DNA of 44,391 nucleotides from Betaproteobacteria bacterium (lineage in GTDB: Bacteria; Pseudomonadota; Gammaproteobacteria; Burkholderiales; Casimicrobiaceae): contig JAPUER010000064.1 of NCBI GenBank assembly GCA_027492485.1, positions 1-44,391 on the forward strand, given 5' to 3'. Position 1 is the first letter of the stretch; each line of letters opens with the position of its first letter. Shown here one piece after another: positions 23,215 through 39,868 of this stretch. The position numbers and the translations under genes were made by a program. The notes under the pieces were generated by a model. The model was not told where the DNA came from. It saw nothing but the letters and a program-made list of their open reading frames with translations, and made no database searches.

Positions 23215-23248
23215 TAACCGCGCTGAACGATCGGCAACGCAGACATCA

Positions 23249-23370: not shown

Positions 23371-23395
23371 ACAAGATACGCAGCAAGGAGGATTG

Positions 23396-25279
23396 ATGAG
23401 CACCCAAGCAACCGGCCCCCGCTATCGCCCGCTCTCGTTCGGCGTTACCCGCGTCGTGGTGCGCGAGGGCGATGGCCACACCTACGCCAGCGCCGACCAG
23501 ACGCTTGCGGAGCATGTGCCGCGTATCACCGACCGGCTGACGCACTGGGCCACGGTGGCGCCGGAGCGCCCCTTCCTCGCGCGCCGCATGCAACACGCCG
23601 ACGGCAGCCGCGGCGACTGGCGCGTGGTGACCTATGGCGAAGCGCTCGCCGCCGCCCGCAGCATCGGCCAGGCGTTGCTCGACGCCGGCGCCAGCGTCGA
23701 ACGACCGCTGGCGATCCTGTCCGAAAACAGCATCGAGCATGCGCTGCTCGGACTCGGCGCGATGTACGTCGGCGTGCCGTACTGCCCGGTGTCGACGCCG
23801 TACTCGCTGGTCAGCCAGGACTTTGAAAAACTGCGCCATGTGCTCGGCACCATCACGCCGGGCGTGGTCTACGCCGCCGATCTCGCGCGCTACGGACGCG
23901 CCATCAACGCCACCGTCGCCGCCGACGTGCCGGTAGTTTGCGACGACCCCACCGCCGGCAGCCGCCAGGCCGGCACCGTGGTGGCGCTGGCCGACTGGCT
24001 CGCCACCCAGCCCACCGCCGCCGTCGATGCCGCGCACGCGGCCACCGGGCCGGACAGCATTGCCAAGTTCCTGTTCACCAGCGGTTCCACCAAGCTGCCG
24101 AAGGCGGTGATCAACACCCAGCGCATGCTCTGCGCCAACCAGCAGCAGATGCGGCAGTCGATGCCGGTGCTGACCGATGCCGACAGTCCGCCGGTGCTGG
24201 TCGACTGGCTGCCGTGGAATCACACCTTCGGCGGCAACCACAACTTCGGCATGGTGCTCTACAACGGCGGCACGCTCTACATCGACGATGGTAAGCCGAC
24301 CGCGGCGCTGATGCACGAGACGCTGCGCAATCTGCGCGAAGTGGCGCCCACGCTTTACTTCAACGTGCCCAACGGCTTCGAGCTGATCGCGCAGGCGATG
24401 CAAAGCGACGATCAACTGCGGCGCACGTTGCTCTCCCGCGTCCGTATGTTCTTCTACGCCGGCGCCGCGCTGGCGCAGCCGATCTGGGACAGTCTCTACG
24501 CCAGCGCGGAGCGCGAGGTGGGCGAGCGCATCGTGATGACCACCAGCCTCGGGATGACCGAGTCGGCGCCGTTCGCCATCTTCGTCACCAGCCCGCATAT
24601 TCGCGCCGGTGAGCTGGGGTTGCCGACGCCGGGTATGGAAATCAAGATGAGCCCCAACAGCGGCAAGCTGGAGCTGCGCTACAAGGGACCGAACATCACG
24701 CCCGGCTACTGGCGCAACCCGGACGCCACGCGCGAGGCGTTCGACGACGAAGGCTTCTTCTGCTCGGGCGACGCCGTGCAGTGGAGCGATGCGGACGATC
24801 TGCACCGCGGCATCCGTTTCGACGGCCGCATCGCCGAGGATTTCAAGCTCGCCACCGGCACCTTCGTCAGTGTCGGCCCACTGCGCGGCAGGATCATCGC
24901 CGCCGGTGCGCCCTACGTGCAGGACGCCGTGATCACCGGTCACGGCGAACACGAGGTCGGCGCCATGCTGATCCCCGTGGCGCCCGCGGTGCGCCAGCTT
25001 GCCGGCCTGCCCGACACCGCGCCGATGGCGGCGGTGCTGGCGTCGAAGCCAGTGCTCGATCACTTCCAGGCCGTCATCAACCGGCTGGCGGCCAGCGCCA
25101 CCGGCAGCGCCAACCGCGTGGCGCGGCTGTGCCTGCTGGCCGAGCCGCCGTCGCTCGACAAGGGCGAAGTCACCGACAAGGGCTCGATCAACCAGCGGGC
25201 GGTGCTGACCCAGCGCGCCGCGACGGTGGCGGCGTTGCACGACGACAGCCTGCCGCACACTCTTAAACCGGCCGCGTGA
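23396..25279 (+). CDS. Feruloyl-CoA synthase-like acyl-CoA ligase
   Basis: A 627-aa ANL-superfamily adenylating enzyme, of the length and type usually called feruloyl-CoA synthase. The ATP-binding loop is FLFTSGSTKLPKAV (about 224-237), followed by the A5-like MTTSLGMTESAP block (about 381-392) and the hinge FDGRIAEDFKLATGTFVSVG (about 478-497). The substrate is probably a hydroxycinnamate. A strong AAGGAGG site fixes the start; the open frame upstream runs through a dispersed repeat. It continues into the MarR gene with a 28-nt gap. Confidence 0.85.
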   Translation: MSTQATGPRYRPLSFGVTRVVVREGDGHTYASADQTLAEHVPRITDRLTHWATVAPERPFLARRMQHADGSRGDWRVVTYGEALAAARSIGQALLDAGASVERPLAILSENSIEHALLGLGAMYVGVPYCPVSTPYSLVSQDFEKLRHVLGTITPGVVYAADLARYGRAINATVAADVPVVCDDPTAGSRQAGTVVALADWLATQPTAAVDAAHAATGPDSIAKFLFTSGSTKLPKAVINTQRMLCANQQQMRQSMPVLTDADSPPVLVDWLPWNHTFGGNHNFGMVLYNGGTLYIDDGKPTAALMHETLRNLREVAPTLYFNVPNGFELIAQAMQSDDQLRRTLLSRVRMFFYAGAALAQPIWDSLYASAEREVGERIVMTTSLGMTESAPFAIFVTSPHIRAGELGLPTPGMEIKMSPNSGKLELRYKGPNITPGYWRNPDATREAFDDEGFFCSGDAVQWSDADDLHRGIRFDGRIAEDFKLATGTFVSVGPLRGRIIAAGAPYVQDAVITGHGEHEVGAMLIPVAPAVRQLAGLPDTAPMAAVLASKPVLDHFQAVINRLAASATGSANRVARLCLLAEPPSLDKGEVTDKGSINQRAVLTQRAATVAALHDDSLPHTLKPAA

Positions 25280-25307
25280 TGCGCCAACATCGCAGCGCCC
25301 AGACCGC

Positions 25308-25829
25308 ATGAGCCGCCGCATTCGCTCCTTCAATCGCGCCACCGGCGACAGCCCCGGCGCCGACGTGGCCATCGACACCTCGTTTCTGGAGTCCCTGCTC
25401 GGCTACAACGCCCGCCGCGCGGCGCTGACCATCATCGAGGCCTTTCTGGAGCGGATGTCCGTCTTCGGCCTGCGTCCGGTGGATTTTTCGGTGCTGTCGC
25501 TGATCACGCACAACCCCGGCATCACCTCGCGGCAATTGTGCGCCGCGCTGGGCATCCTGCCGCCGAATCTGGTGAAGCTGATCGCGGAGCTCGACCGCCG
25601 CGGTCTGCTGGTGCGCAAACCGCACCCGGAGGACGGCCGCGCCATCGGCCTGCATCTGAGCGCCGACGGCCGCAAGCTGATGCGCGAAGCCGAAGTCGCC
25701 GCGCGCGACCTCGAAGACCGCGTGTCGGCGCCGCTCACGATGAACGAGCGCGCGCTGCTGATGAGCCTGCTGCGCAAAATTTACAAGCCGGACCGCACGC
25801 CGTCCGCGACCGAGGAAAAGCAGCCATGA
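25308..25829 (+). CDS. MarR-family transcriptional regulator
   Basis: A 173-aa MarR protein with a winged helix from about 60 to 125. The recognition region is TSRQLCAALGILPPNLVKLIAELDRRGLLVRKPHPEDGRA with the wing arginine-rich DGR motif. Proteins of this type often sense hydroxycinnamoyl-CoA esters, which fits its placement after the CoA ligase. The gene ends as ATGA overlap with the next one. The likely site is the inverted repeat at 22397. Confidence 0.92.
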   Translation: MSRRIRSFNRATGDSPGADVAIDTSFLESLLGYNARRAALTIIEAFLERMSVFGLRPVDFSVLSLITHNPGITSRQLCAALGILPPNLVKLIAELDRRGLLVRKPHPEDGRAIGLHLSADGRKLMREAEVAARDLEDRVSAPLTMNERALLMSLLRKIYKPDRTPSATEEKQP

Positions 25830-26692
25830 AACACCAGAACCTGATCGCCATCGACATCCACACCCACGCCGAAGTGAGCTGCTGGAACCCGTTCGACGCC
25901 TACGGCGAGGAATACGACCGCGCGGCGGACAAATACTTCCGCTCCAGCCGCCGCCCGACCATTGCCGAGACGGTGGCCTACTATCGCGAGCGCAAGATCG
26001 GCCTCGTCATGTTCACCGTGGATGCCGAGACCAACCTGGGCCGCAAGCGCATCCCGAACGAGGAGATCGCGGCCGCTGCCAAGGAAAACAGCGACATGAT
26101 GATCGCCTTCGCCAGCATCGACCCGCACAAGGGCAAGATGGGCGCCCGCGAAGCCGAGCGGCTGATCAAGGAAGAAAACATCAAGGGCTTCAAGCTGCAC
26201 CCGACGGTGCAGGGCTTTCATCCGAACGACCGCATGTGCTGGCCGCTGTACGAAGTGATCGACGCGCACAAGATGCCGGTGATCTTTCACACCGGGCACA
26301 GCGGCATTGGCTCCGGCATGTATTGCGGCGGCAAGCTGCGGCTCGAATATTCGAACCCGATGCATCTCGACGACGTCGCGGTGAACTTCGGCGACATGCA
26401 GATCGTCATGGCGCACCCGAGCTTTCCGTGGCAGGACGAGGCGCTCTCGGTGGCAACGCACAAGCCGAACGTGTGGATCGATCTCTCGGGCTGGAGTCCA
26501 AAGTATTTTCCGAAGCAGCTGGTGCAATACGCCAACACGCTGCTCAAGGACCGCGTGCTGTTCGGCTCCGACTATCCGCTGATCACGCCCGAGCGCTGGA
26601 TGAAGGATTTCGAAGAGGCGGGATTCCGGCCCGAGGTGATGCCGGGGATTCTCAAGGGCAATGCAGTGCGGCTGCTGGGGCTCGATGCCTGA
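25826..26692 (+). CDS. Amidohydrolase-family metal enzyme
   Basis: A 288-aa TIM-barrel amidohydrolase of the ACMSD/resorcylate-decarboxylase type. Metal or catalytic residues are visible: HxH at H12/H14 (IDIHTHAE), GFKLHP, VIFHTGH, VMAHPSFPW and terminal FGSDYP aspartate. Relatives decarboxylate or hydrolyse aromatic ring products. It overlaps the marR stop by 4 nt, so it is translated with the CoA-ester genes and probably belongs to the same catabolic route, but its reaction is unknown. Confidence 0.88.
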   Translation: MKHQNLIAIDIHTHAEVSCWNPFDAYGEEYDRAADKYFRSSRRPTIAETVAYYRERKIGLVMFTVDAETNLGRKRIPNEEIAAAAKENSDMMIAFASIDPHKGKMGAREAERLIKEENIKGFKLHPTVQGFHPNDRMCWPLYEVIDAHKMPVIFHTGHSGIGSGMYCGGKLRLEYSNPMHLDDVAVNFGDMQIVMAHPSFPWQDEALSVATHKPNVWIDLSGWSPKYFPKQLVQYANTLLKDRVLFGSDYPLITPERWMKDFEEAGFRPEVMPGILKGNAVRLLGLDA

Positions 26693-26707: not shown

Positions 26708-27088
26708 CTAAAACACCAGCGTTTGCCACGCCGCATCCATTGCCCGCGACATGAACTGCACCGCGCCGCCGTAGCGGCTGCATTCGGCAATCAGGTTCTG
26801 CGGGTCGACCTCGTGCGCGGCGAGTGCGTCGCGGCAGGCATAGAGCACCGCGCCGTGCTCGACGGCTTCGCGGATGCTGTCGAGGATGGTCTTCGGATGC
26901 GCCGATGCGTGCAGCGCGGCGGCGACGCCCGGCTGCAGCAACTTCACGCTGCCGGCGGTGAAATAGATTTCAACCCTGGCCTCCATCGCGGCGGCAGCGG
27001 CGGCGCAAAAGAACGGCGTGGCCAGCAGGTGCGGCGTACCCGGATCGGCCCGCCACAACAGGATGGCGACGTTGCGCGATTCAGCCAT
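26708..27088 (-). CDS. DsrE-family protein
   Basis: A 126-aa protein of the DsrE/DsrF-like family (YchN fold). Alternating strands and helices are seen, such as VAILLWRADP, LATPFFCAAAAAA and RVEIYFTAGSVKLL. Cysteines lie near residues 25, 75 and 94 (FFCAAA, LYACRD, AECSRY). DsrE proteins bind or transfer sulfur as persulfide in several sulfur-handling systems. Its start overlaps the end of the GcvH-like gene by 8 nt, and it closes the 13-kb formate dehydrogenase/selenocysteine unit. Sulfur or selenium carriage is inferred. Confidence 0.8.
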   Translation of the reverse strand: MAESRNVAILLWRADPGTPHLLATPFFCAAAAAAMEARVEIYFTAGSVKLLQPGVAAALHASAHPKTILDSIREAVEHGAVLYACRDALAAHEVDPQNLIAECSRYGGAVQFMSRAMDAAWQTLVF

Positions 27089-27527
27089 CGGTCCAGCCCT
27101 CGGTGTGCCGGCTTGCTGCGATGTACTGCTCCGTCGCCGCGATCGCATTGGCTGGCTGCTGCAGGGCGGCGAGATTGGCCGCGAGATTGCCGCAGCGAAT
27201 GCGCGCCAGCCAGCCCTCGCCATACGGGTCGCTGCGAATCAGCGCCGGCGTCAATTCGACGGCGTGATTGACCTCGACTACCAGTCCGGAGACTGCCGCC
27301 TTGACCGAAACGATCGTCTTGGCCAGCTCGACGACGCCGAGTCCGCGCCCCTGCACGACCTCGGTGCCGACCGGTTTCAGCCGGCACATATGAATGTCGC
27401 CAGCGAGATGGATGCCGAGCGCCGTAATGCCGACCACCACGTCCTGCGCATCGACGGGCCGCGCCCACACCTGATGCTCGATCAGGAGCCACAGCTCGTC
27501 GGGGAATGAATGACCGGCGATGATCAT
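27081..27527 (-). CDS. GcvH-like lipoyl-carrier protein
   Basis: A 148-aa protein resembling glycine-cleavage H protein. The lipoylation-site region is TIVSVKAAVSGLVVEVN (lysine in SVKA), followed by the GEGWLARI end of the H-protein fold. No gcvT or gcvP lies nearby, so a glycine-cleavage role is doubtful. Paralogues called LbpA carry sulfur intermediates on lipoate in the sHdr system and are often linked to DsrE. It lies 16 nt after selC. An LbpA-like sulfur or selenium role is inferred from context. Confidence 0.82.
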   Translation of the reverse strand: MIIAGHSFPDELWLLIEHQVWARPVDAQDVVVGITALGIHLAGDIHMCRLKPVGTEVVQGRGLGVVELAKTIVSVKAAVSGLVVEVNHAVELTPALIRSDPYGEGWLARIRCGNLAANLAALQQPANAIAATEQYIAASRHTEGWTDG

Positions 27528-27543
27528 GCGCCGGCGCGAAAAG

Positions 27544-27639
27544 TGGCGGAAGGGAATGGGAGTCGAACCCACCCGGCAGCGCATGGCACCGCCCACCGGG
27601 TTTGAAGCCCGGCCGATCCACCAGGATCGTTTCCCTTCC
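27544..27639 (-). tRNA. selC: tRNA-Sec (selC, anticodon TCA)
   Basis: A 96-nt tRNA with an 8-bp acceptor stem (27632-27639 with 27548-27555), encoded CCA at 27544-27546, anticodon loop CTTCAAA with TCA in the middle, and a long extra arm. These are the hallmarks of bacterial selenocysteine tRNA, which reads UGA under SelB. It begins 6 nt after the selB stop and so is probably processed from the same transcript. Confidence 0.97.
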
Positions 27640-27645
27640 ATGAAA

Positions 27646-29598
27646 TCATCGCGTCTGACTCTCTGCAAACAGCGCGCAATCCTCGCGCACCCGGTGAGTA
27701 TCGCCGACCCGGCGACAGAGACCGACGCGGTCGAAGTATTCCAGAATCTGAATGGCCCGCTTGCGTCCGATTTTTGTGGCATCGCGCAGTTGCGCGGCGG
27801 TGACCTCGCCGTCACCGGCGGCAGCCTGGCGGCGCACAATGCCGGCCAGCGCTTGCATGGTCGCGGCCGGATACACCAGGTCGCGCACAACCTGATGCAC
27901 GGCGCCGGCCTGGGCGAGGCGCGCGACCGAGGCGCGCATGATCGACTCGGCCACGCCGCAATCGCGCGCTAGGTCGCGTAGCCAGCCCCCTTCAAAACCG
28001 GCGCTGGCGAGCGGCGCTGCAATCTGCTGGGCAATTCGTTCGTCGACGCTGGACAGGCGCACCGCATGGTCCGCCAGATGCAGGAATGCGCCCCGCTGCG
28101 CAAGCGTCAGCACCTGCGCGTAGTCGCCACCGAGGCAGGCGGCGATGAGGGTGTCGAAAAGCGCCTGCGGCAATCGCGGTGTGGCCATCCGCCGCAACCT
28201 TCCGCGATCGAGGCCAAGTTCGTCCGGGTGGCTCGCGTGATACGCCGCCAGCGTTGCGGCAATGGCCTGCACCGCCTGTTGGGCAAACTGCGGGGCGAGC
28301 GCCACGCCGTCGGCGCCGCCACCGGTGACGACCGGCGCCGACGACTGCCAGTCGGCTGTCAGTCCCTCGGCGCGGCGGAAGGTGGCGAGCGACACGCCGT
28401 GGGCGCAGGCATCGAGCAACGCCTGCCATCGCTGCGCCACGGTTGGCTGCTGCAAGGCGTGCAACTCTGCCAGGCGCTGCGCGCTGCGGCGATAACGGGT
28501 AGGGGCATCCGGATCCAGCACGACGCCGCCAGCGATGGTCCGCGACGCCGATGCATCGCGCAGGACGACACGGTCGCCACGCCAGGCGCCGAGCGGGCGT
28601 CGCACCACGAGTTGTGCCAGTTGCCGTTGTCCGGGCGCGATGCGGTCGGCGCCGTCAGCAGACAGTACGGCAACACTCGCCATCGCCGTGGCAGCGCCGA
28701 TGTGGACATGCACCGGCGTGCCGGAGCGCAGCGCCGCAGCTTCGCCCTGCCAGACGTCAAGCAGCACATCGAGTCTGGACGAAGTGCTGCCGCAGTCGGT
28801 GGCAACCAGCCACTGGCCGCGTTCGATCTCGTCCTTGCCGACGCCGGCCAGCGCAACGGCACAGCGCTCGCCGGCATGCCCCGATTCGGCCTGCGCATTC
28901 TGCGCGTGCAGGCTGCGCACGCGAACCGCCTTCCGCGCGTCCGCGGGCACCACGTCCAGCATGTCGCCGGTACGAACGATGCCGGCGTGTACGGTGCCGG
29001 TGACGACCGTGCCGACGCCGTCCAGCGTGAACGCCCGGTCGATGGCCAGACGAAACGCACGACCCAGTTCGCTGTATCGCATGACTTCGCCGCTCGCGGC
29101 AAACAGCCAGCTGCGCAGCGCCTCGATGCCGGTGCCGACGGTTGCTGCGGTAACGAAGACCGGTGCGCCGTCGAGCGTGGTGCCGTGCAGCAGGTCGCGA
29201 GCGGCAGCTGCGACCTCGTCGACCCGCGCGGCATCGACACGATCGGCCTTGGTAATGACGACCGCGCCGTGGCTGACCCCCAGCAACGAGAGCACCGCGA
29301 GATGCTCCCGCGTTTGCGGCATGATGCCGTCGTCGGCGGCGACCAGCAGCAGCGCGAGATCGATGCCGCTGGCTCCGGCCAGCATCGTGTGCACCAGCCG
29401 CTCGTGGCCGGGTACATCGATGAACCCAATGCGGGTCGGGCTGCCATCGGGTGTCGCCCCCGGCAGATAGGCGTAGCCCAACTCAATGCTGATGCCGCGC
29501 GCCTTCTCCTCCGGCAGACGGTCGGTTTCGACGCCCGTCAGCGCACGCACCAGCGTCGTCTTGCCGTGGTCGATGTGGCCTGCAGTGCCGACGATCAT
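27646..29598 (-). CDS. selB: Selenocysteine-specific elongation factor SelB
   Basis: A 650-aa factor. The GTPase part carries [25 protein letters not shown] and VITKADRVD. After EF-Tu-like domains the C-terminal ~250 residues form the winged-helix region that grips the SECIS hairpin in mRNA. It delivers Sec-tRNA to the ribosome at recoded UGA codons, here most plausibly that of fdnG. The selC tRNA directly follows. Confidence 0.97.
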
Positions 29599-29646
29599 GT
29601 TTGACTCGCGATAGCGGTCGTGCCGAAACCTGCTCGCACCACCGCA

Positions 29647-30750
29647 CTAAGCCGCGATTTCGCGTGCGCTAATGGTGTACTTGAAGGTGTCGGGCGACAG
29701 TGAATCGAACGCACCCGTGGCATTCTCGCCGTTCGGATACATCAGGAACGGCAGGCTGCCCTTGGCGCTTGAGCCGGGCAAGCGGATGTCGTGCGCCGTA
29801 TTCCAGCCCACCCAGTTGCCCTCCCAGCGTCCGAACAGACCGGCATAAACCGGGGCGGCGACCGGATGCTTCGGATCTTTGAGCCATTCGGCGGTTTCCT
29901 GGCGCATCACTTTCAGCACGTCGGCGGGGTCCATCGCCACCCAGCCGTATGATTTCAGATAGACCTCCGCGCGACAGTGCTGGGCGCCTTTCAGATTGGC
30001 CGGGTTCGCCCCCAGTTCCTTGTACGGGAATGCCGAGGGCGCGAGGCGCAGTCCGTAGACGTCGCGCGCCGGAATGCCGACCGCGCGACAAAGGCCGACG
30101 AACAGTGCATTGAGGTCGGCGCACTTGCCGCCGAGATTGCCGGTTTCCAGCATGGTCTTGATGTCGCCGGTGCCGCAACCGCGCGTGCTCGGCTCGCGAT
30201 GCCCGTTGGCGATCACCCAGTCGTAGAGCGCCCGCGCTTTCTCCAGGTCGGTCTTGGCGTTGCGGGTGGCCTCGACGGCGGTCTTGCGCACGATGCCGTC
30301 GATTGGCTGCAATTCCGTGGCGCCAAGGTAGGCTTTGAGTTGCGCGGGATCGACATCGGCCACGCTGCCGGGGCGAGAAAGATCGGTCACGCGGTTGCGC
30401 GTTTGCAGCTTGCTGGTCACGGTAAGCGTCGGCGCCTGCACACCGGCATCGAACTCGGCGTACAGCATGCGCACACCGCGGGCCGGATCGCTGGCGAGAC
30501 TTGCCCGGGTGGCGTTTCCGCTCCAGTCGTTGCCGAGGGTCTTCTGCCAGTCGGTGTCCAGATCCGGCACCGGCAGCCAGAGTTTGCTTCCGCCCTTCGG
30601 ATCGGCAACGCTGACCGTGGTCGATAGTTCAAACGTGCGCCAGGGTCCGGGCAGCGGCTCGAAGCGGCGATCCTGGGCAAACGCGGGCAGCGGCAAAGCG
30701 GCGGCCAGGCCCGCCTTCAGCAATTGGCGACGAGAAATCGGGAAGTGCAT
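29647..30750 (-). CDS. Tat-exported transglutaminase-like protein
   Basis: A 367-aa protein with a twin-arginine signal (ISRRQLLKAGLAAALPLPAFA). The C-terminal half is a transglutaminase/papain-like fold with a Cys-His-Asp triad: C210 in GGKCADLN, H258 in AQHCRAEVYL and D274 in VAMDPADV. Proteins of this fold are proteases or transglutaminases, or inactive scaffolds. It is followed by selB 48 nt later. A periplasmic role linked to the neighbouring thioredoxin-like and flavoprotein genes is inferred. Confidence 0.82.
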   Translation of the reverse strand: MHFPISRRQLLKAGLAAALPLPAFAQDRRFEPLPGPWRTFELSTTVSVADPKGGSKLWLPVPDLDTDWQKTLGNDWSGNATRASLASDPARGVRMLYAEFDAGVQAPTLTVTSKLQTRNRVTDLSRPGSVADVDPAQLKAYLGATELQPIDGIVRKTAVEATRNAKTDLEKARALYDWVIANGHREPSTRGCGTGDIKTMLETGNLGGKCADLNALFVGLCRAVGIPARDVYGLRLAPSAFPYKELGANPANLKGAQHCRAEVYLKSYGWVAMDPADVLKVMRQETAEWLKDPKHPVAAPVYAGLFGRWEGNWVGWNTAHDIRLPGSSAKGSLPFLMYPNGENATGAFDSLSPDTFKYTISAREIAA

Positions 30751-30789
30751 CGATGTTTCCTTTCGAGAAGAGACGGAAGGGCAACAACC

Positions 30790-31341
30790 TCAGTTGCCGC
30801 GGGTTTCGAGAATGGGGCGCAACCAGCCGGCGGCAGCGGCGCCCAGCCAGTCAACCTCGCCAATCACCATGAAGCGGGCACGACCGCTGGCGTCGATCGC
30901 CACCGTCGTTGGATAAATGCGGACACCATAAGCCTTGGCGACACCGCCGTCGCGATCGCGCAGCACGGTGAGCGAGAGCCCGGTTTGTTCGACGAACCGG
31001 CGCACGGTGGCGTCGGTCTCCCGGAAATTGATCGCCAGCACCCGCAAACCCGTCTGCCGGTGGCGCGTTTCCAGCAACTCCAGCGAGGGCATCTCGGTGC
31101 GGCAAGGCTCGCACCAGCTCGCCCAGAAATTGAGCAGTACCGGACTGCCGCGCAGGGAGGCCAGCGACAGCGTTGGGCCATCGCCGCCATCGAGCGAGAA
31201 GTCCGGCGTTGGCCGACCTGTGGGCCACGCAACGGCGTTCGGGGCGGCGACTGCCGTCGCGGGACAAGCAACCGACAGCGCGGTGGCTGTCAGCCAGCCG
31301 AACGCGCGGCGGCGATCGGGGCGTTGGCACGCGAACTTCAT
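30790..31341 (-). CDS. TlpA-like periplasmic thioredoxin
   Basis: A 183-aa exported thioredoxin-fold protein. It has a signal peptide, the strand LLNFWASWCEPCRTEMP with redox cysteines C77 and C80, and a cis-proline RIYPTTV motif. Such proteins reduce or reshuffle thiols during cytochrome c maturation or deliver electrons outside the cytoplasm. The ATG overlaps the stop of the FccB-like gene as ATGA, so the two are translationally coupled. A link to the flavoprotein's disulfide is plausible. Confidence 0.9.
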   Translation of the reverse strand: MKFACQRPDRRRAFGWLTATALSVACPATAVAAPNAVAWPTGRPTPDFSLDGGDGPTLSLASLRGSPVLLNFWASWCEPCRTEMPSLELLETRHRQTGLRVLAINFRETDATVRRFVEQTGLSLTVLRDRDGGVAKAYGVRIYPTTVAIDASGRARFMVIGEVDWLGAAAAGWLRPILETRGN

Positions 31342-32669
31342 GCAAACAGGTCATCCACCATGCGCGCGAACCAGCGGAAGTCTTCCCGAACGAGATCGGC
31401 GCGGCGGTCGTTGTCGTCGATCTGGCTCTGCTCGATGATGCCGTCGTTATTGATCTTGTAGTCGAACTGTACGGCCACCGCTTCGCGCGGCTCGCCGTTG
31501 ACCAGCATGTAGCACAGGTTGTCCGGCAGTGCCCCCTTCGGCACCCGTCCGGCGATGCGTTCGGCGATGTATTTGGCCACGATGCGCCCTTGCTGGTTGG
31601 CGACATGGCCGGCCTTCGGATAGAAGAGAAATTGCGGCGACACCAGACCGACCGCGTCGCCGATCACGTACACGTTGGGGTCGTTCTTCAGGTGCAACAT
31701 CAAGGGGTCGACGGCCGCCCAGTTGGTCGGTTTGCCCTCGGCATTGCGGCCGATCGCACCGGCCTTCCAGGCCAGATCGCCTGCCTGATGCGGCGCCATC
31801 AGCACCGCATGATCGAACTTGAGGTCACCCGCCGCCGTCTTGATGCGCTTGGCAAAGGGATCGATTTCCTTGACGTGGGCGTTGGGGACGTAGGTGATGA
31901 TGTCTTTGTAGAGTTCGTTGAACGCGGCGCGGAAACCGAGCCCGATCGGGCGAACGCCATCTTTGTGATCGAGGATCGTGATGTGGCCGCGGACGTTGTG
32001 CTTCTTGAACCACCAGGCAACCAGACAGGCCCGCTCATAGGGGCTCGGCGGGCAACGCTGCGGCGGCGGCGGCAACGTCATCACCCATTCGCCACCCTTG
32101 AAGTCGTGCAGCGCGCGCTTCAATGCGAAGTGTTCGGCATTGGGCACGTAGGCCGCCGGGAAGCGTGCCCTGGTGGCTTCCGCCGCGCGGCGGTCGTTGC
32201 CGAACCATGCCTCGTAGTCGTAGCGGATGCCGGGCGCCAGCACCAGATAGTCGTAGTCGAGCCAGCCGAGATGGGTGACGACCCGCTTCGCATCGCGATC
32301 CACGGACAGGATTTCGCACTGGATGAAGCGGTAGCCGTGGCGCTCCGACACCCGCAGATATTCGTAGGTCAGAAACTGGGTATCGACGACGTCGATGAGC
32401 CATTTGTTGCTCATCGGACACGAAAAGAACGCGCTGTTGCGCTCCAGCATGACAACCTCGGCGTCCGGCGCAAGCTGACGTAGCTGCTTGCTGACGGCGA
32501 GCCCGCCCCAGCCGCCGCCGCACACCACAATGCGCGGCGCCTTGCCCTTCGCCATCAGCGGTTGCGACTGACCACCGATCAGGAAGGGCAGCGTGGTGCC
32601 CTGGCTGAATGCGGTCGATGCCAGCGCGGCGCTGCTGGCGGCGATGAATTGACGGCGGTTCTGGCGCAT
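31338..32669 (-). CDS. FccB-like sulfide dehydrogenase flavoprotein, Tat-exported
   Basis: A 443-aa FAD enzyme with a twin-arginine signal (QNRRQFIAASSAALAS) and a dinucleotide site at VVCGGGWGGLAV (about 48-59). The redox cysteines of flavocytochrome c sulfide dehydrogenase are conserved: C206 in QRCPPSPYERA and C386 in DNLCYML. FccB normally pairs with a cytochrome c (FccA), and none is encoded here. It lies 21 nt after selA, inside a selenocysteine operon, which is unusual for a sulfide-oxidation enzyme. A selenide or polysulfide substrate is possible. Confidence 0.85.
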   Translation of the reverse strand: MRQNRRQFIAASSAALASTAFSQGTTLPFLIGGQSQPLMAKGKAPRIVVCGGGWGGLAVSKQLRQLAPDAEVVMLERNSAFFSCPMSNKWLIDVVDTQFLTYEYLRVSERHGYRFIQCEILSVDRDAKRVVTHLGWLDYDYLVLAPGIRYDYEAWFGNDRRAAEATRARFPAAYVPNAEHFALKRALHDFKGGEWVMTLPPPPQRCPPSPYERACLVAWWFKKHNVRGHITILDHKDGVRPIGLGFRAAFNELYKDIITYVPNAHVKEIDPFAKRIKTAAGDLKFDHAVLMAPHQAGDLAWKAGAIGRNAEGKPTNWAAVDPLMLHLKNDPNVYVIGDAVGLVSPQFLFYPKAGHVANQQGRIVAKYIAERIAGRVPKGALPDNLCYMLVNGEPREAVAVQFDYKINNDGIIEQSQIDDNDRRADLVREDFRWFARMVDDLFA

Positions 32670-32690
32670 GTTGACTCCTTTGTGTCGCGA

Positions 32691-34145
32691 TCAGCGGTGG
32701 GTGAGCAATGTCTTCAGCGAAAGCAATTGACCGGTAATGTGCGCAGCATCGTCCAGACAGCGGCAATCGAGCCATAGCGCATCGTCGCCGATGCGGCCGA
32801 CGATCGGTGTCGGCAGTTGACGCAGCGCGGAAGCCAGCGCATCGAGCAGGCGGCCAGTCCCTTTGCGTTGCGCGGCGGCGGGCGCAAACTTGAGGCCGAA
32901 CGAGGGCAGACGATCGACCGGAAGCGAGCCCGAGCCGATCTGGCTGGACATCGCGACGGCCTCGACCGTGTAACGCGGCGCCACGGCGGCGAGCACCTGC
33001 GGCGCCAGCGCCCGCGCCAGCGCTTCGATCTGCGGCTGCGGCCGCGTCAGATGGCGTAGCGTCGGCAAGTCCTGCGCCAGTCGTTCGGGGCGCAGGTAAA
33101 GCGTGAGCGTGGCTTCGAGCGCTGCCAGCGGCAGCTTGCTCATGCGCAGCGCGCGCTTCATCGGAAATTTGCGGATACGGCCGACCGCGGCCTTGCTGCC
33201 GACGATCAGTCCCGCCTGCGGCCCGCCGAGCAGCTTGTCGCCAGAAAAGGTCACGACATCGCAGCCGGCACGCAGCATTTCCTGCGGCGTCGGCTCGTGG
33301 GGCAGGCCCCATTGCGCGAGATCGACGAGGGCGCCGCTGCCAAGATCGGTGGCCACCGGCAGGCCGCGAGCATGCGCGATGCCGGCAAGCGTCGTCTCGT
33401 CGACCGCCGAGGTGAAACCCTGCACGGCGTAGTTGCTGGTGTGCACCTTCATCAGCAACGCCGTGCGCTCGTTGATTGCGCGTTCGTAATCCGCCGGGTG
33501 GGTGCGATTGGTGGTGCCGACTTCGACCATATGGGCGCCCGCGCTGGCCATGACGTCGGGCATGCGGAAAGCGCCGCCGATCTCCACCAGTTCGCCGCGC
33601 GAGACGATGACCTCGCGGTCGCGGGCAAGCGCCGCGATGGTGAGCAGGACGGCACCCGCGTTGTTGTTGACGACCGTGGCGGCTTCCGCACCAGTGAGGT
33701 CGCAAAGCAGCTCTTCGACAATGCTGTCGCGGTCGCCGCGGCTGCCGGTATCGAGGTCGAATTCAAGATTGTTGGGGCCGGCCATCACCTGCAGGATGTG
33801 CTGCAGCGCGCTCTCGGCCAGTGCGGCGCGCCCCAGGTTGGTGTGGATTACCGTGCCCGTAAAATTGAGTACGGAGCGCATGCTCGGCGCGAGCCGCTGC
33901 GTCAGGCGGGAGGAGAGCGCCGCCGCCAGCGCGTCGGGCGTCGCCTCGTCGTGAGGCAGCTCGCCAGTCACGGCACGTTGCCGCAGGCTTTCGAGCAGGG
34001 CACGCGCTTCTTCAACCAGCAACGAGTGGCCGTGCTCGGCGAGCAGCGCCTGCCCGTCAGGCGAGCGCAGCAGTTTGTCGATGGAGGGCAGATCCTTGGG
34101 GGTTGCCTTCAAGCCGTGAACCACGGACTCGTCGGTCGTCGCCAT
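32691..34145 (-). CDS. selA: L-seryl-tRNA(Sec) selenium transferase
   Basis: A 484-aa PLP enzyme that converts seryl-tRNA(Sec) to selenocysteyl-tRNA(Sec) using selenophosphate. The PLP lysine is K304 in VVTFSGDKLLGGPQAG. Further family features are NNNAGAVLL and the TNLGRAALAE motif. The length suits bacterial SelA (about 460). It starts one nucleotide within the fdhE stop (TAATG), so it is coupled to fdhE. SelD is not encoded in the window. Confidence 0.97.
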   Translation of the reverse strand: MATTDESVVHGLKATPKDLPSIDKLLRSPDGQALLAEHGHSLLVEEARALLESLRQRAVTGELPHDEATPDALAAALSSRLTQRLAPSMRSVLNFTGTVIHTNLGRAALAESALQHILQVMAGPNNLEFDLDTGSRGDRDSIVEELLCDLTGAEAATVVNNNAGAVLLTIAALARDREVIVSRGELVEIGGAFRMPDVMASAGAHMVEVGTTNRTHPADYERAINERTALLMKVHTSNYAVQGFTSAVDETTLAGIAHARGLPVATDLGSGALVDLAQWGLPHEPTPQEMLRAGCDVVTFSGDKLLGGPQAGLIVGSKAAVGRIRKFPMKRALRMSKLPLAALEATLTLYLRPERLAQDLPTLRHLTRPQPQIEALARALAPQVLAAVAPRYTVEAVAMSSQIGSGSLPVDRLPSFGLKFAPAAAQRKGTGRLLDALASALRQLPTPIVGRIGDDALWLDCRCLDDAAHITGQLLSLKTLLTHR

Positions 34146-35173
34146 TACGGATCTCCGGGGTCGGGCGTATCGGGATCGCCGTATAACAACATTAAATTGA
34201 CTCCGTGCCGCTCGAAGCCTGCTTCAGACACCAGGAGATCCAGTGCGACGGTGGCCAAGTCGTCGGCGATGGGATCGACATGCAGGTCGCGTTCCATGTG
34301 CACGATTTTCAGGTAGTGCCCGCATTCGTCGCAGGTTTCCGCTTCTACCGCAGGCTTGAACTTGCTTGATGTCACGGCGCCATCGGCAGCCGCTTGCAGC
34401 GACTGATAGTGAATGCCCTTGGTGCTTTCGCAGTGAGAGCATTTGATGCGCACCATGTGCCATTGCGCCGAACACAGCGAGCAATGCTGATAGCGATGGC
34501 CCGTGTTCTCGCTGCCGACGCGGGAGATGCTGGCGCTCGGCAGACTGCCGCAGCAGGGGCAATGCCCGGTGCGCAGCGTGCGGCCAAATGGCGAGGCAGT
34601 CATCCGCACCGACGCCGGTTGCCCGCCGTGGGCGGCCTGCGTCGTCAGGACCAGATGCGTCCAGTATGTTTGCAGCCCCGCCGCGATGAGCGGCGCCGCC
34701 GCCATGTCGAGCCCGAACATGACGCCGTTGAGCAGACGATCGGCCTGCAGATTCAGACGTTCGTCGTCGGCACTGCGCAGCGCTTCGACCGCAGTGCGCA
34801 CCGGACTGGGTTCAAGCCGCGCCAGCAGGCGATCCAGCAGGCCGCGGAGTTCGTCGACCCACACGCCATCGCGCGGCCACGTCGACGCCGGCAACAACGG
34901 AGCCGCCTCGCCCGCGGCACTGCGCACGGCAGCGGCGTCGGGCACCACGACATCGGGATAGTGCTGCAGGCTCTCGTGCTGGCACTGTGCCACGTCGGCC
35001 ATGAATAGCAGGAAGTCGCGCATCGAATGCGAGGCGGCACGTTCGCGCAAACGCGTCGCACGATCGGCAAATACCGACGCGCGCTCGGGCAGGCGCACGT
35101 ACTGCACCTGCTCGCCCGCCTGTACCGCTATCTCTTCCGGCGTTTTGAGCCGTACCGCCTGGCTGACGCCCAT
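34145..35173 (-). CDS. fdhE: Formate dehydrogenase accessory protein FdhE
   Basis: A 342-aa accessory protein needed for activity of respiratory formate dehydrogenases. It contains four CxxC pairs (CPCC, CSLC, CSHC, CDEC) in its second half, the iron-binding rubredoxin-like region of the family. The start MGVSQAVRLKTPEEIAVQAG is used because it fits the family; the frame is open much further upstream without similarity. It follows fdnI by 50 nt and abuts selA. Confidence 0.95.
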   Translation of the reverse strand: MGVSQAVRLKTPEEIAVQAGEQVQYVRLPERASVFADRATRLRERAASHSMRDFLLFMADVAQCQHESLQHYPDVVVPDAAAVRSAAGEAAPLLPASTWPRDGVWVDELRGLLDRLLARLEPSPVRTAVEALRSADDERLNLQADRLLNGVMFGLDMAAAPLIAAGLQTYWTHLVLTTQAAHGGQPASVRMTASPFGRTLRTGHCPCCGSLPSASISRVGSENTGHRYQHCSLCSAQWHMVRIKCSHCESTKGIHYQSLQAAADGAVTSSKFKPAVEAETCDECGHYLKIVHMERDLHVDPIADDLATVALDLLVSEAGFERHGVNLMLLYGDPDTPDPGDP

Positions 35174-35223
35174 CCAACTCTTTCCAACGATGATTGCCCA
35201 TCGGGATGACGAGCAGCTAACCG

Positions 35224-35850
35224 TTATTGTCGCTTGTTCCCGAGAATTTTGGCAGCCCACAGCGGGTGGTGCGCGCGCGCCCAGCCCTCGGTCACCGTGC
35301 CGCGGGTCATGGCGCGCATGGTGCCCTTGACCCAGATGGCGGCGTAGGCGTGGACGATCACCGAAATGATTAACACTACCGCCGCGATGGCATGCAACAG
35401 GGTCGCCAGACGCACAACGAAGATCGGGAAGTAGCCGGCGAACCACGGCCGCCAAAACATGAAACCGGTCACGATCAGCACCAGCAGACTGATCGCGAAG
35501 GCCCAAAACACGAGCTTCTGCCCCGCGTTGTACTTGCCAACCGGCGGCATGTTTTCCTTGTGTCCCTCGATCATTTCGCGGGACCGCTCAAGCCACTCAC
35601 TGTCGTCGCGATTCCAGACGTTTTCGCTGCGGAAGCGGAGGAACAGAAAGACGAACCCGAGCACCATGCCGACACCGAGGAACGGATGCAGGATACGCGT
35701 CCACGGGCCACCGCCGAACAGATTGCTGAGGAAGAACAGCGACGGATGGAAGAACGCGAGCCCCGACAGTGCCGCGAAAAAGAACAGAACGACCACCAGC
35801 CAATGGTTCATGCGGTCGCGATCTTCGTAACGCTTGACATACCTAGGCAT
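35224..35850 (-). CDS. fdnI: Formate dehydrogenase cytochrome b556 subunit (gamma)
   Basis: A 208-aa membrane subunit with four helices. Heme-ligand histidines sit in [27 protein letters not shown] and VIVHAYAAI. It takes electrons from FdnH and passes them to quinone. Its start overlaps the fdnH end by 8 nt. The symbol follows the E. coli FDH-N nomenclature; an FdoI-type assignment is equally possible. Confidence 0.95.
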
Positions 35851-36766
35851 GGGGGCCTCCTTTGGTCGCGGCCGTATCCGCAGTTTCTTCTTCCTCTTTC
35901 ACTTCGACCGGACCGACCTTCATGTAGTGGAAGAACCCGGCAAACGCCGCACCGATCATCGCCGCGAGCGCCAGCGGTTTGGCCGCGCTCTTCCACAGCG
36001 CCACCATCGGGCTGATCTTCGGGTCGGCCGGCAAGCCGTGATACAGCTCCGGCTTGTCGCCGTGCTGCAGCACGTACATCACATGGGTGCCGCCCACGCC
36101 TTTCGGGTCGTACACGGCGGCCTGCATGTAGCCACGCTCCTTGAGCTCGGACACGCGCCCGGCGCCGTATTCATGCATGTCTTCCTTGCTGCCAAAGTGA
36201 ATGGCGCCGGTCGGACAGGCTTTGACGCAGGCCGGCTCCAGCCCGACGCTCACGCGATCGGAACACAGCGTGCACTTGTATGCCTTGTTGTCCTTTTTGC
36301 TGATGCGCGGGACGTCGAACGGACAGCCGGTGATGCAGTTGCCGCAACCGATGCAGTTCTCCTCGATGAAGTCGACGATACCGTTGCTGTACTTCACGAT
36401 GGCGCCGGGCGAAGGACAGGCCTTGAGGCAGCCCGGGTCTTCGCAGTGCATGCAGCCATCCTTGCGGATCAGCCACTCGAGATTGGTCTCCTGCGCCGCT
36501 TCCGACTTTTTGGTCTCGACTTCGGAGAAACGCATCACCGTCCACGATTGCGCCGTCAGGTCGCGCGGGTTGTCGTAGACGCCGACCGTATTGCCGACAT
36601 CGTCGCGCAGATCGTTCCATTGCATGCAGGCCACCTGACACGCCTTGCAGCCGATGCAGCTCGATACATCGATGAGCTTGGCGACTTCGGGCGTGTTGCG
36701 CACTTGCGGACTCGGCGAGGTGGTTGCCGAGCGTGCCTTGATATCCAGGGATTGCAGAGAAGACAT
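35843..36766 (-). CDS. fdnH: Formate dehydrogenase iron-sulfur subunit (beta)
   Basis: A 307-aa subunit with four 4Fe-4S ferredoxin-like cysteine blocks, starting [31 protein letters not shown] and CTLCSDRV, and a C-terminal membrane helix (about 263-285) that anchors it. It relays electrons from the FdnG active site to FdnI. The AAGGAGG ribosome site lies at the end of fdnG, 12 nt after its stop. Confidence 0.97.
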
Positions 36767-36778
36767 GGCGATACCTCC

Positions 36779-39700
36779 TTATGCCTTCTCGATGTTGACG
36801 ATGAAGCTCTTGTATTCGGGCGTCTGCGTGTTGGCGTCCCCGACGAACGGGGTCAGCGTGTTCACCAGATAGCCCGGCTTCGCCACACCGACGAATCCCC
36901 AGTGGTTGGGCAGACCGACGGTATCGATCTTCTTGCCGTCCACCGTGAGCTGCGGGATGCGCTTGGTCACCGTTGCCACCGCCTTGATGAAGCCACGGTT
37001 GGACGAGACCTTCACCATGTCGCCGTTGGCAATGCCCTTGGCCTTCGCCAGCTCCTCGCCGATCTCGACGAATTGCTGCGGCTGGATGATGGCATTGCTT
37101 TCGACGTTCTTGGTCCAGTAGTGGAAGTGCTCCGTCAAGCGGTAGCTGGTTGCCACATACGGAAAGTCCTTCGGCGTACCGAACGCTTCCATGTCGCCCT
37201 TGTAGACGCGTGCCGCGGGGTTCGCCCTTGCCTTCGCGTTGGTCGGGTGCATGGGGTTGTTCTCGAGCGGTGACTCGAACGGCTCGTAGTGCTCCGGCAG
37301 CGGCCCTTCGGCCATGCCGGTCGGCGCGAACAGTCGCGCCACGCCCTCCGCTGTCATGATGAACGGCTGCACGCGATCGGGGTCGCCCGGATTCGCGGCC
37401 GGGTTGATGTCGGGCACGTCGGCCCCGGCCCAAGCCTTGCCGTTCCACTGCATCAGCTTGCGCTTGCCGTCCCACGGCTTGCCGTCCGGCGCGCTCGACG
37501 CGGCGTTGTAAAGGATGCGGCGGTTCGCCGGCCACGCCCACGCCCAGGCGAGCGTCTGCCCGATGCCAAACGGATCGCTGTTGTCGCGGCGAGCCATCTG
37601 GTTGCCGGCCTGCGTCCACGAGCCGGTGTAAATCCAGCAACCGGACGCCGTCGTGCCGTCGTCACGCAAGAGCCCGAAGCCGGCCAGTTGTTCGCCGGCC
37701 TTGGCGAGCACCTTGCGCTCGGCCTTCGGGTCTTTCGGATCAACCGGCGACAGCACATCTTCCAATGCCTTGCCGTTGTATTCCATCGCCAGTTCTTCCG
37801 AGGACGGACTGTCGGGAATCTTGTACGGCCAGGTCAGGTTCAGGATCGGGTCGGGGAAAGCGCCGCCGTCCTTGGCGTAGGCCGCTTTGATGCGCAGGAA
37901 GATCTCGGCGATGATTTCAGCATCGCCCTTGGCTTCGCCGGGAGGCGGCGCGCCTTTCCAGTGCCACTGCAGCCAGCGACCGCTGTTGGTCAACGAGCCG
38001 TCTTCTTCGGCGAAGCAGGTGCTCGGGAAACGGAACACCGTGGTCTGGATTTCTTCGCTCTTGACATCGTTGTGTTCGCCGTAGTTCTTCCAGAACTCGG
38101 CGGTCTCGGTGTTGAGCGGATCGATGATGACGAGGTATTTCAGCTTCGACAGGCCACCGACGATCTTCTTCTTGTTCGGGAACGAACCGACCGGGTTGAA
38201 GCCCTGGCAGATGTAGCCGTTCAACTTGCCCTGGCCCATCAGCTCGAATGCCGCGAGCACGTCGTACAGCCGATCCCATTTCGGCAGGTAGTCGAACGCC
38301 CAACTGTTTTCGGCGGTGGCCGCCTTGCCAAACCACGCCTTTTGCAGACTGACGAAGAACTTCGGATAGTTCTGCCAGTAGCTCATCTGGTTCGGGCGCA
38401 GCGGCTTCAGCGCACGCGTCTTGTAGTACGTCTCCAGATCTTGCTCGGTATCGCGAGCGAGGCTCAGGTAGCCAGGCAAGCTGTTGGAAAGCAGGCCGAG
38501 ATCGGTGAGGCCCTGAATGTTGCTGTGACCGCGCAGCGCGTTCATGCCACCACCGGCGATGCCGATGTTGCCGAGCAGCAGTTGCATGATGGCCGCCGTG
38601 CGGATCATCTCCGAGCCCGTGCTGTGCTGTGTCCAGCCCAGCGCGTACATGATGGTCATCGCCTTGTTCGGCGCAGCGGTACTCGCGATGTGCTCGCAGA
38701 CCTTGAGGAACTTGTCCTGCGGCGTGCCGGTGATCTTGCTGACCATCTCCGGCGTGTAGCGCGAGAAATGGGCCTTCATGATCTGCAGTACGCAGCGCGG
38801 ATGCTGCATCGTTTCGTCGACCTTGGCGAAGCCCTTGTCGTCGAGCTCGTAGGCCCAGCTTGCGTTGCTGTAGCTGCGCTTGGCCTCGTCGTAGCCGGAG
38901 AAGATGCCGTCCTTGAACGAGTACCCCTCGCCCACGATGAACGGTGCGTTGGTGTAGTGCTTGACGTAGTCCTGCTGGATCTTGTTCTGGCTCAGCAGAT
39001 AGTTGACGACACCGCCCAGGAAGGCGATATCGCTGCCGGCACGAATCGGCGCGTAGTAATCGGCCATCGCGGCCGAGCGCGTGAAGCGCGGGTCGACGAC
39101 GACCAGCTTTGCCTTGTTGTGATGCTTCGCTTCGACAACCCACTTGAAGCCGCAGGGATGCGCTTCAGCGGCATTGCCACCCATGATCAGAACTACATCG
39201 GCGTTCCTGATGTCCACCCAATGGTTGGTCATCGCACCGCGGCCAAACGTCGGAGCCAGACTGGCTACCGTGGGGCCGTGTCAGACGCGTGCCTGATTAT
39301 CGAATACCAGCATCCCCATCGAGCGCATCGCCTTGTGGGTGATGTAGCCCGACTCGTTGGACGAAGCAGAGGCGCAGAGCATGCCGGTCGTCAACCAGCG
39401 GTTGACGGTCTGCCCGGCAGCGTTCTTGGCGATGAAGTTGGCGTCGCGATCCGCCTTCATCATTTTCACCAGGCGGGACATTGCGTCGTTCCAACTCACG
39501 CGCTTCCATTCCTTGCTGCCCGGTTCCCGGATTTCCGGGTATTTCAGCCGATTCGGGCTGTGCACGAAGTCGAGCAAGCCGGCGCCCTTCGGGCACAGCG
39601 TGCCGCGATTGACCGGATGATCGGGATCGCCCTCGATGTGCACGATGTCGGCGACCACGTTTTTCGCCTTGTCGCCCAGGCTGTACATGATGATGCCGCA

Positions 39701-39868
39701 GCCGACCGAGCAGTACGGGCAGGTATTACGCGTTTCCGTGGTCCGGGCAAGCTTGAAGTTGCGCGTCTCGGCCAACGCCGCAGTGGGCGAAAAACCGAGC
39801 GCGACCAGACTGGAACTCACCAGCCCGCCGCCCGTCACCCGGAAGAATTGCCTCCGGTTCATATCCAT
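36779..39868 (-). CDS. fdnG: Formate dehydrogenase alpha subunit, selenoprotein (Sec at residue 196)
   Basis: A 1029-aa molybdopterin (bis-MGD) enzyme that oxidises formate outside the cytoplasm. A Tat signal (NRRQFFRVTGGG) precedes the 4Fe-4S cysteines C50, C53, C57 and C92. An in-frame UGA at 39281-39283 lies between ARV and HGPTVASLAP, the exact place of selenocysteine 196 in E. coli FdnG, and the frame continues without shift to 36779. A SECIS hairpin follows the UGA. The start at MDMNRRQFF is used because of an AGGAG site 9 nt upstream. It heads the 13-kb unit. Confidence 0.97.
39251..39270 (-). promoter_or_regulatory. Bacterial SECIS hairpin
   Basis: Directly after the UGA, the transcript folds as a short stem with a bulged U (39267) and an AGUCU-type loop. 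The lower pairs are CGG with CCG and the upper stem is AGCC with GGCU. Bulged U and loop GU are the SelB contacts known in E. coli fdhF/fdnG. It begins 10 bases after the UGA codon, in the usual position. Confidence 0.88.
39281..39283 (-). other. Selenocysteine UGA codon of fdnG
   Basis: The codon TGA is followed by CAC GGC CCC ACG in the same frame, giving ARV-Sec-HGPT, as in FdnG proteins. It is recoding, not a broken gene, because selA, selB, selC and the SECIS hairpin are all present in the same unit. Confidence 0.95.

What the first reader, a model, noticed from the sequence alone, without database searches (positions are those of the whole stretch)
26708..39868. Sulfur-type proteins embedded in a 13-kb formate dehydrogenase / selenocysteine unit
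fdnGHI-fdhE-selA-[FccB-like]-[TlpA-like]-[transglutaminase-like]-selB-selC-[GcvH/LbpA-like]-[DsrE] run on one strand with gaps of 50 nt or less and several overlaps. Sec machinery clustered with an FDH is known, but a sulfide-dehydrogenase flavoprotein with both redox cysteines, a thioredoxin, a lipoyl carrier and a DsrE protein between or behind the sel genes is not something I can match to a described system. A possible reading is a dedicated selenium acquisition and delivery route: periplasmic flavoprotein plus thioredoxin convert selenium species, and the DsrE and lipoyl carrier pass it inside to the Sec pathway. Alternatively they provide a sulfide-linked electron route next to the FDH.
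Basis: partly seen in the sequence, partly recalled or inferred. Interest (0 to 1): 0.75.

Follow-up and report, generated by a model that had tools for sequence, protein, structure and literature searches.

The report
Sulfur-carrier pair beside selenium formate dehydrogenase
A bacterial gene block that makes a selenium-containing formate dehydrogenase carries a recurrent pair of small sulfur-handling proteins, a lipoyl carrier and a DsrE protein, that probably help finish that enzyme, plus a sulfide-type flavoprotein, while two other neighbouring genes look like unrelated passengers.

Summary
The run is real: fdnGHI-fdhE-selA-[FCSD flavoprotein]-[TlpA]-[transglutaminase]-selB-selC-[GcvH-like]-[DsrE], one strand, gaps of 50 nt or less, Sec UGA and SECIS present. 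The five "extra" genes are not one system. (1) gcvH-dsrE is a recurrent pair that follows formate dehydrogenase: in 16 of 52 selB loci with fdn genes nearby, 1 of 57 without; near 19 of 74 Sec-type FDH places and 0 of 19 Cys-type (suggestive only: like for like 0 of 12, p 0.06). The lipoyl lysine and DsrE cysteine are each kept in 31 of 31 rows; the cysteine pair of sHdr LbpA is missing. (2) The flavoprotein has an RR signal and all three FCSD cysteines. It forms one clade, 14 of 16 beside sel genes, next to a SoxF-like clade; two members sit in genomes without SelB or FDH-N. (3) TlpA and transglutaminase form a separate two-gene module, 6 of 53 places near selB. Best reading: the pair relays protein-bound sulfur or selenium for maturation of this FDH; S or Se is undecided.

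The parts
36779..39868 (-). fdnG, formate dehydrogenase-N alpha, Sec at U196, RR signal
39228..39286 (-). SECIS_3 element (RF01989)
   Evidence: 83.7 bits
35843..36766 (-). fdnH, iron-sulfur beta subunit
35224..35850 (-). fdnI, cytochrome b subunit
34145..35173 (-). fdhE, FDH accessory protein
   Evidence: TIGR01562 229.8 bits; ATG read
32691..34145 (-). selA
   Evidence: TIGR00474 574 bits
31338..32669 (-). FCSD-type (FccB/SoxF-like) flavoprotein with RR signal; Cys84, Cys206, Cys386 align with positions 42, 161, 337 of 1fcd
   Evidence: tree
30790..31341 (-). TlpA/ResA-like thioredoxin (WCEPC); passenger module with the next gene
29647..30750 (-). transglutaminase-like protein with RR motif; passenger module
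27646..29598 (-). selB
   Evidence: TIGR00475 451 bits
27548..27639 (-). selC, tRNA-Sec
27081..27527 (-). GcvH-like lipoyl-domain protein, lipoyl-site Lys70 kept
26708..27088 (-). DsrE-family protein, Cys85 kept; last gene of the run

Best explanation
The block is a biogenesis neighbourhood for a selenocysteine formate dehydrogenase N with one tightly linked accessory pair, one looser accessory and two passengers. Shown by sequence: the gcvH-like/dsrE pair sits behind tRNA-Sec or behind fdnGHI-fdhE in at least nine families of the order, so far seen only with Sec-type FDH, with the lipoyl-site lysine and the DsrE cysteine invariant. Inferred: the DsrE cysteine takes up a persulfide or perselenide from a cytoplasmic donor (a NifS/IscS-type desulfurase); the lipoyl dithiol of the GcvH-like protein accepts or reductively releases it; the chalcogen then goes into FDH-N maturation, either as selenide for SelD and SelA or as the sulfido ligand of the Mo cofactor through FdhD. 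The FCSD-type flavoprotein is exported and works in the periplasm, where FDH-N also faces (recalled), oxidising sulfide or polysulfide, or selenide; it is optional. TlpA and transglutaminase are an unrelated two-gene module.
For: Pair in 16 of 52 selB loci with fdn genes nearby against 1 of 57 without. Beside fdnGHI-fdhE without sel genes in L233 and L235, and in L234 up to a contig end. In G355 an fdnG fragment lies with a shortened dsrE and a weak gcvH match while selA and a full-length selB are on another contig. dsrE within 20 kb of 19 of 74 Sec-type FDH places and 0 of 19 Cys/no-stop places (mended by 106, 107); each of the 19 also has gcvH in its locus. In f21, 4 of 4 Sec genomes have it and the 1 Cys place does not. 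gcvH lies downstream of selC in 25 of 26 related loci, within 300 nt in 19. Lys70 31 of 31, Cys85 31 of 31. The pair is distinct from the sHdr pair. DsrE-like YedF/FdhU is already tied to selenium and FDH (PMC5322559, passages seen).
Against: 53 of the 72 Sec places first counted have no such DsrE within 20 kb (55 of 74 after mending; 53 of 74 if far-linked G083 and contig-split G263 are granted), so it is not required for Sec or FDH. The Sec-against-Cys contrast is weak: p 0.010 over all places, 0.06 for like-for-like FDH-N (0 of 12), 0.08 by family (9 of 26 against 0 of 8), none corrected for kinship; part of it may only reflect that Cys loci have no sel operon to hold the pair. The co-decay is one case. 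No result separates S from Se. Lipoylation was not tested.
Confidence: 0.48

Rival explanations
1. Dedicated selenium route: periplasmic flavoprotein and thioredoxin convert selenium species, DsrE and the lipoyl carrier hand selenide to SelD/SelA.
For: Pair seen only with Sec-type FDH so far, downstream of selC in 25 of 26 related loci; flavoprotein clade 14 of 16 beside selA/selB.
Against: Pair absent from 56 of 57 selB loci without fdn genes nearby; in G355 the pair is damaged or weak beside an fdnG fragment while selA/selB remain; TlpA not linked to sel; flavoprotein kept in two genomes without SelB.
Confidence: 0.2
2. Sulfur relay to molybdenum: DsrE and the lipoyl protein feed FdhD/IscS-type sulfuration of the FDH-N cofactor.
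For: Pair follows the FDH genes; one related cluster also holds a MOSC-domain protein (L140); FDHs need a sulfido ligand (PMC12140954, start of abstract seen).
Against: 0 of 19 Cys/no-stop FDH places have the pair though they should need the same ligand (recalled), weak at 0 of 12 like for like; the window's genome already has an FdhD homologue (129 bits, under the curated cut-off).
Confidence: 0.24
3. Sulfur oxidation in trans: the flavoprotein is this organism's SoxF and DsrE/lipoyl protein are an LbpA-like sulfur shuttle that merely sits here.
For: Nearest outside relatives of the flavoprotein are beside soxYZ; own genome has SoxY twice and its next best FCSD-like match is only 33% identical.
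Against: Flavoprotein clade is separate from the sox clade (95/99); the lipoyl proteins lack the LbpA cysteines and the pair groups apart from the sHdr pair. Whether the own genome has sHdr genes was not searched.
Confidence: 0.15
4. Redox protection: lipoyl dithiol and DsrE keep the Sec selenol of FdnG reduced before export, or clear excess selenide.
For: FDH linkage together with the (weak) Sec-only pattern fits a factor acting on the Sec enzyme itself.
Against: DsrE proteins are known as sulfurtransferases rather than reductases (recalled; the wording of PMC6067878 passages, agrees). No paper search was aimed at this idea.
Confidence: 0.15
5. Neutral neighbours: genes carried along with a mobile Sec-FDH island without functional link.
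For: Fits TlpA and transglutaminase: 87% identical copy in a same-genus genome without SelB over cut-off or FDH-N, 6 of 53 places near selB.
Against: The gcvH/dsrE pair recurs in at least nine families, both behind selC and behind fdhE, with invariant catalytic residues.
Confidence: 0.1

Closest known systems
sHdr LbpA/DsrE sulfur-oxidation system (Hyphomicrobium denitrificans type)
   Same: GcvH-like lipoyl protein encoded next to a DsrE protein; invariant lipoyl-site lysine and DsrE cysteine.
   Different: No Hdr-like, LplA or radical-SAM genes in the block; lacks the LbpA cysteine pair; separate branches in both trees; linked to Sec-FDH.
YedF/FdhU (SirA/TusA + DsrE fusion of selenium users)
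   Same: DsrE-type domain linked to selenium use and to FDH biogenesis (PMC5322559, passages).
   Different: DsrE domain only, no SirA/TusA domain; no YedF model among its NCBIfam hits; paired with a lipoyl protein instead.
Flavocytochrome c sulfide dehydrogenase FccB / SoxF
   Same: FCSD_central domain; cysteines at 1fcd positions 42, 161 and 337 kept in 16 of 16 clade members.
   Different: No cytochrome c gene in the run; own clade tied to sel genes; 56 sox-linked relatives have the first of these cysteines in only 8.
E. coli-type fdnGHI with fdhE and selAB
   Same: Same core enzyme, SECIS and Sec machinery.
   Different: Sec machinery, flavoprotein and carrier pair joined in one run (E. 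coli arrangement recalled).

Membership tests
Formate dehydrogenase N (selenoprotein) | TIGR01553 over cut-off with in-frame UGA and SECIS | tested here: met
sHdr lipoate-binding protein LbpA | strictly conserved lipoyl lysine | tested here: met
   31 of 31
sHdr lipoate-binding protein LbpA | two conserved cysteines near N and C terminus (PMC6067878 section 6) | tested here: not met
   N-terminal column 3 of 31 against 26 of 26 in sHdr-type rows; C-terminal columns under 3 of 31 against 12 and 13 of 26
sHdr lipoate-binding protein LbpA | encoded with hdr-like genes | tested here: not met
   window genes; relatives carry fdn/sel genes, though their other ORFs were not all scanned
Glycine cleavage GcvH | reaches the curated GcvH cut-off | tested here: not met
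   68.9 bits against 115.85 (TIGR00527), 87.5 against 117 (NF002270)
Glycine cleavage GcvH | works with GcvT/GcvP; a separate GcvH-type match exists in the genome | tested here: inconclusive
   second GcvH-type match G000:C58; its neighbours not examined
DsrE/DsrF family | Pfam DsrE over gathering score and active cysteine | tested here: met
   32.2 bits against 22.7, Cys85 31 of 31
YedF (TIGR03527) | N-terminal SirA/TusA domain | tested here: not met
   126 aa, DsrE domain only
Flavocytochrome c sulfide dehydrogenase flavoprotein | FCSD_central domain and the redox cysteine pair | tested here: met
Flavocytochrome c sulfide dehydrogenase flavoprotein | cytochrome c subunit encoded beside it | tested here: not met
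   no cytochrome c among the genes of the run
SoxF | encoded with soxYZ | tested here: not met
   the 13 related sel-clade rows beside sel genes show no soxY/soxZ nearby; the window's SoxY matches are on other contigs

The most novel reading that the evidence does not exclude
The GcvH-like protein is a third functional class of lipoyl carrier (beside GcvH and LbpA) that, with its DsrE partner, carries lipoyl-bound selenium (or sulfur) into maturation of selenocysteine formate dehydrogenase: a cofactor-borne chalcogen delivery step that is not part of the textbook Sec pathway.
Probability: 0.23. Interest if true: 0.85.

Novelty: new variant of a known kind. Interest (0 to 1): 0.52.

Why it matters
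How toxic selenide is handed to SelD, and how the Mo site of formate dehydrogenase is sulfurated, both rest on poorly known carriers. A recurrent lipoyl/DsrE pair tied to Sec-type formate dehydrogenase is a concrete, deletable candidate for one of these steps and would extend lipoyl-protein sulfur chemistry beyond sulfur oxidation. The work also shows which neighbours to set aside (TlpA, transglutaminase).

Tried and rejected
Chance neighbours for the whole set: rejected for gcvH/dsrE and the flavoprotein, accepted for TlpA/transglutaminase.

sHdr membership of the lipoyl/DsrE pair: rejected. SoxF inside a sox cluster: rejected for position, kept as a rival for function.

A partner for the flavoprotein was looked for in a few ORFs of relatives: an FMN-reductase-like and a MOSC protein in L140, no cytochrome among the ORFs scanned. 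Plasmid records: DsrE no match; GcvH 67 records, all under 60% identity and none covering 80% of the query. PDB by sequence: the single DsrE protein found nothing up to E 1; its ten-row profile gave two DsrE-type entries at 2.5e-05 and 0.0011, and five weaker ones.

Read, five are Cys and two (G005:C15, G090:C6) have TGA, so the counts changed from 19/72 against 0/21 to 19/74 against 0/19, the f46 and f6 Cys entries are withdrawn, and the f20 Cys places proved to be divergent FDHs (34-41% identical to the window's, six of seven read). For this I lowered confidence 0.50 to 0.48, the selenium rival 0.22 to 0.20 and the novel case 0.25 to 0.23, and raised the sulfur rival 0.22 to 0.24.

Three of the four 'both' labels (L041, L071, L078) rest on 30-34 bit selA/selB hits and were not believed; L021 is real.
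Full report
1. What is there. The run lies on the minus strand at 26708-39868 with spacings between -8 and about +50 nt. FdnG is a TIGR01553 formate dehydrogenase N alpha subunit with one in-frame TGA (U196) and a SECIS_3 element beside it; tRNA-Sec lies between selB and the GcvH-like gene. FdhE, SelA and SelB pass their curated cut-offs; FdnH and FdnI have the expected domains. The five other proteins are an FCSD-type flavoprotein, a TlpA/ResA-like thioredoxin, a transglutaminase-like protein, a GcvH-like lipoyl protein and a DsrE protein. The next gene beyond DsrE is a convergent amidohydrolase. selD is on another contig (G000:C70).

2. How often the arrangement recurs. A scan of named genomes with the flavoprotein gave 78 loci. 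The ten closest (60% identity or more, L005-L014) all sit with selA/selB, and nine of the ten also show both gcvH and dsrE; L012 is an 8.1-kb contig that ends after selB. None of the other 68 shows gcvH or dsrE at the thresholds used, and one (L021) has fdn/selA genes nearby. In 399 genomes of the window's order SelB passes its cut-off in 106. I fetched up to 20 kb around 109 selB places outside the window (some cut by contig ends, a few genomes with two places or pieces). The gcvH/dsrE pair is in 17 of 109, the flavoprotein in 3, a transglutaminase above 200 bits in 8, TlpA above 60 bits in 3. gcvH lies downstream of selC in 25 of the 26 pair loci (nine named, 17 unnamed), within 300 nt in 19; L153 is rearranged.

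3. The pair follows formate dehydrogenase. Among selB loci it is in 16 of 52 with fdn genes nearby and 1 of 57 without; that one (L180, G083) has fdnG about 27 kb off. In f46 (L233, L235, and L234 up to its contig end) the pair follows fdnGHI-fdhE with the sel genes on other contigs. In G355 an fdnG fragment sits with a shortened dsrE and a weak gcvH match while its selA and selB are elsewhere. Most Sec-type FDH places have no pair, so it is an accessory.

4. Is it tied to Sec? FDH (TIGR01553, E 1e-150) was found in 88 of 399 genomes at 93 places. A first count gave a DsrE of this kind within 20 kb of 19 of 72 Sec and 0 of 21 other places. Checking showed that seven partial matches had not covered the Sec position: five are Cys, two are TGA. 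Mended: 19 of 74 against 0 of 19 (p 0.010). Seven of the 19 are divergent FDHs of family f20; for like-for-like FDH-N it is 19 of 72 against 0 of 12 (p 0.06), and by family 9 of 26 against 0 of 8 (p 0.08). In f21, 4 of 4 Sec genomes have the pair and the one Cys place does not. So Sec linkage is suggestive, not shown. The residue was read as Cys in six of the 19 places; the other 13 are known only to have no stop in the match.

5. What the pair is. The lipoyl-site lysine (Lys70) and the DsrE cysteine (Cys85) are each kept in 31 of 31 fdh/sel-linked rows, four duplicate rows having been dropped. The nearest comparison is the LbpA/DsrE pair of sHdr sulfur oxidation; one such locus here (L239) holds CCG, lipoate-ligase and radical-SAM proteins. 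But LbpA is marked by two conserved cysteines (PMC6067878, section 6 read) and the fdh/sel-linked proteins lack them. In the DsrE tree the sHdr-type rows form one fully supported branch and the fdh/sel rows need two changes (one in 52% of bootstraps). In the GcvH tree the fdh/sel rows need two changes and three GcvH rows fall among them, with long branches, so a single origin is not shown. The window protein also stays under the GcvH cut-offs. I file it neither as LbpA nor as GcvH.

6. The flavoprotein. It aligns with FCSD structures 5n1t and 1fcd. Cys84, Cys206 and Cys386 fall on 1fcd positions 42, 161 and 337 (counted by me on the alignment); that these are the FAD-linking and redox cysteines is recalled. 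They are kept in 16 of 16 clade members, as is an RR motif; in 56 sox-linked relatives position 84 is Cys in only 8. In the tree the sel-linked proteins form one supported clade (95/99) of 16, with G111 and G363 nested inside it; the neighbouring clade holds the sox-linked ones (60 of 146 collected rows used). These two genomes have no SelB over cut-off and no FDH-N, so the protein can be useful without Sec. A 57% relative in the other clade (L228) lies upstream of fdnG in G184.

7. TlpA and transglutaminase. The transglutaminase occurs in 49 of 240 genomes at 53 places, 6 of them near selB, the window included (coordinates). A copy 87% identical sits in a same-genus genome without SelB over cut-off or FDH-N (G038). 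TlpA stands beside it in 16 of 30 loci fetched. In the nearest relative L005 the two lie behind dsrE, not before selB. They look like a separate module that changes place.

8. Mechanism. Shown: linkage, conserved catalytic residues, distinctness from sHdr. Inferred: DsrE takes up a protein-bound chalcogen and the lipoyl dithiol receives or releases it for FDH maturation. The Sec-only tendency favours selenium or an action on the Sec enzyme; the FDH linkage and a MOSC protein in one cluster (L140) favour sulfur for molybdenum. I cannot separate these. Cysteine desulfurases are reported to mobilise both S and Se, with FdhH affected (PMC8300815, passages), so a common donor is plausible.

9. Literature. 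DsrE-like YedF/FdhU is already tied to selenium and FDH (PMC5322559: abstract and passages). I found no description of a lipoyl protein with DsrE in a Sec-FDH cluster in the listings of searches, which cover open-licence PMC papers only. PMC6067878: passages and section 6; its text has no 'formate' or 'selen'. PMC13188914: passages. Of all other papers I saw the listing and start of abstract only.

Noticed in passing
L140 7946-8998 (+): Between the flavoprotein and selB of genome G218 lie an FMN-reductase/flavodoxin-like protein and a MOSC-domain protein, a hint at molybdenum-cofactor sulfur chemistry in the same cluster.
   Followed up: partly
L234 10229-11485 (-): A PepSY_TM protein stands between fdhE and gcvH in the G263 cluster without sel genes.
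   Followed up: no
L021 (uncultured Paracoccus): soxYZ and two FCSD-like genes lie beside fdnGHI-fdhE-selA, the FCSD-like genes on the opposite strand.
   Followed up: no
window 31338-32669, Cys215: An extra cysteine nine residues after Cys206 is invariant in the sel clade (16 of 16) and in sox-linked relatives (56 of 56) but is Ser in the two FCSD structures aligned.
   Followed up: partly
L128, L131, L180: A transglutaminase-like gene sits between selA and selB in three genomes of two families.
   Followed up: partly
L284, L285: A divergent formate dehydrogenase (34-35% identical to the window's) in G005 and G090 has TGA at the Sec position; G247, G335, G019, G186 and G149 have Cys-type divergent relatives (in G335 one of two places read).
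   Followed up: partly
window 43285-44244 (+): IS-type transposase (DDE_Tnp_1, DUF772) near the window end, 3.4 kb upstream of fdnG.
   Followed up: no
window 22438-26692 (+): Plus-strand block with enoyl-CoA hydratase, AMP-binding ligase and amidohydrolase, convergent with the Sec-FDH run.
   Followed up: no
G181, G267, G100, G324: Two selB places over the cut-off in one genome each; in G324 they may be pieces of one gene.
   Followed up: no
L236, L237, L238, L240: A further DsrE group (42-44% identical) shows no fdn, sel or gcvH genes in its fetched loci; near L237's lies a nitroreductase, near L236's histidine kinases.
   Followed up: partly
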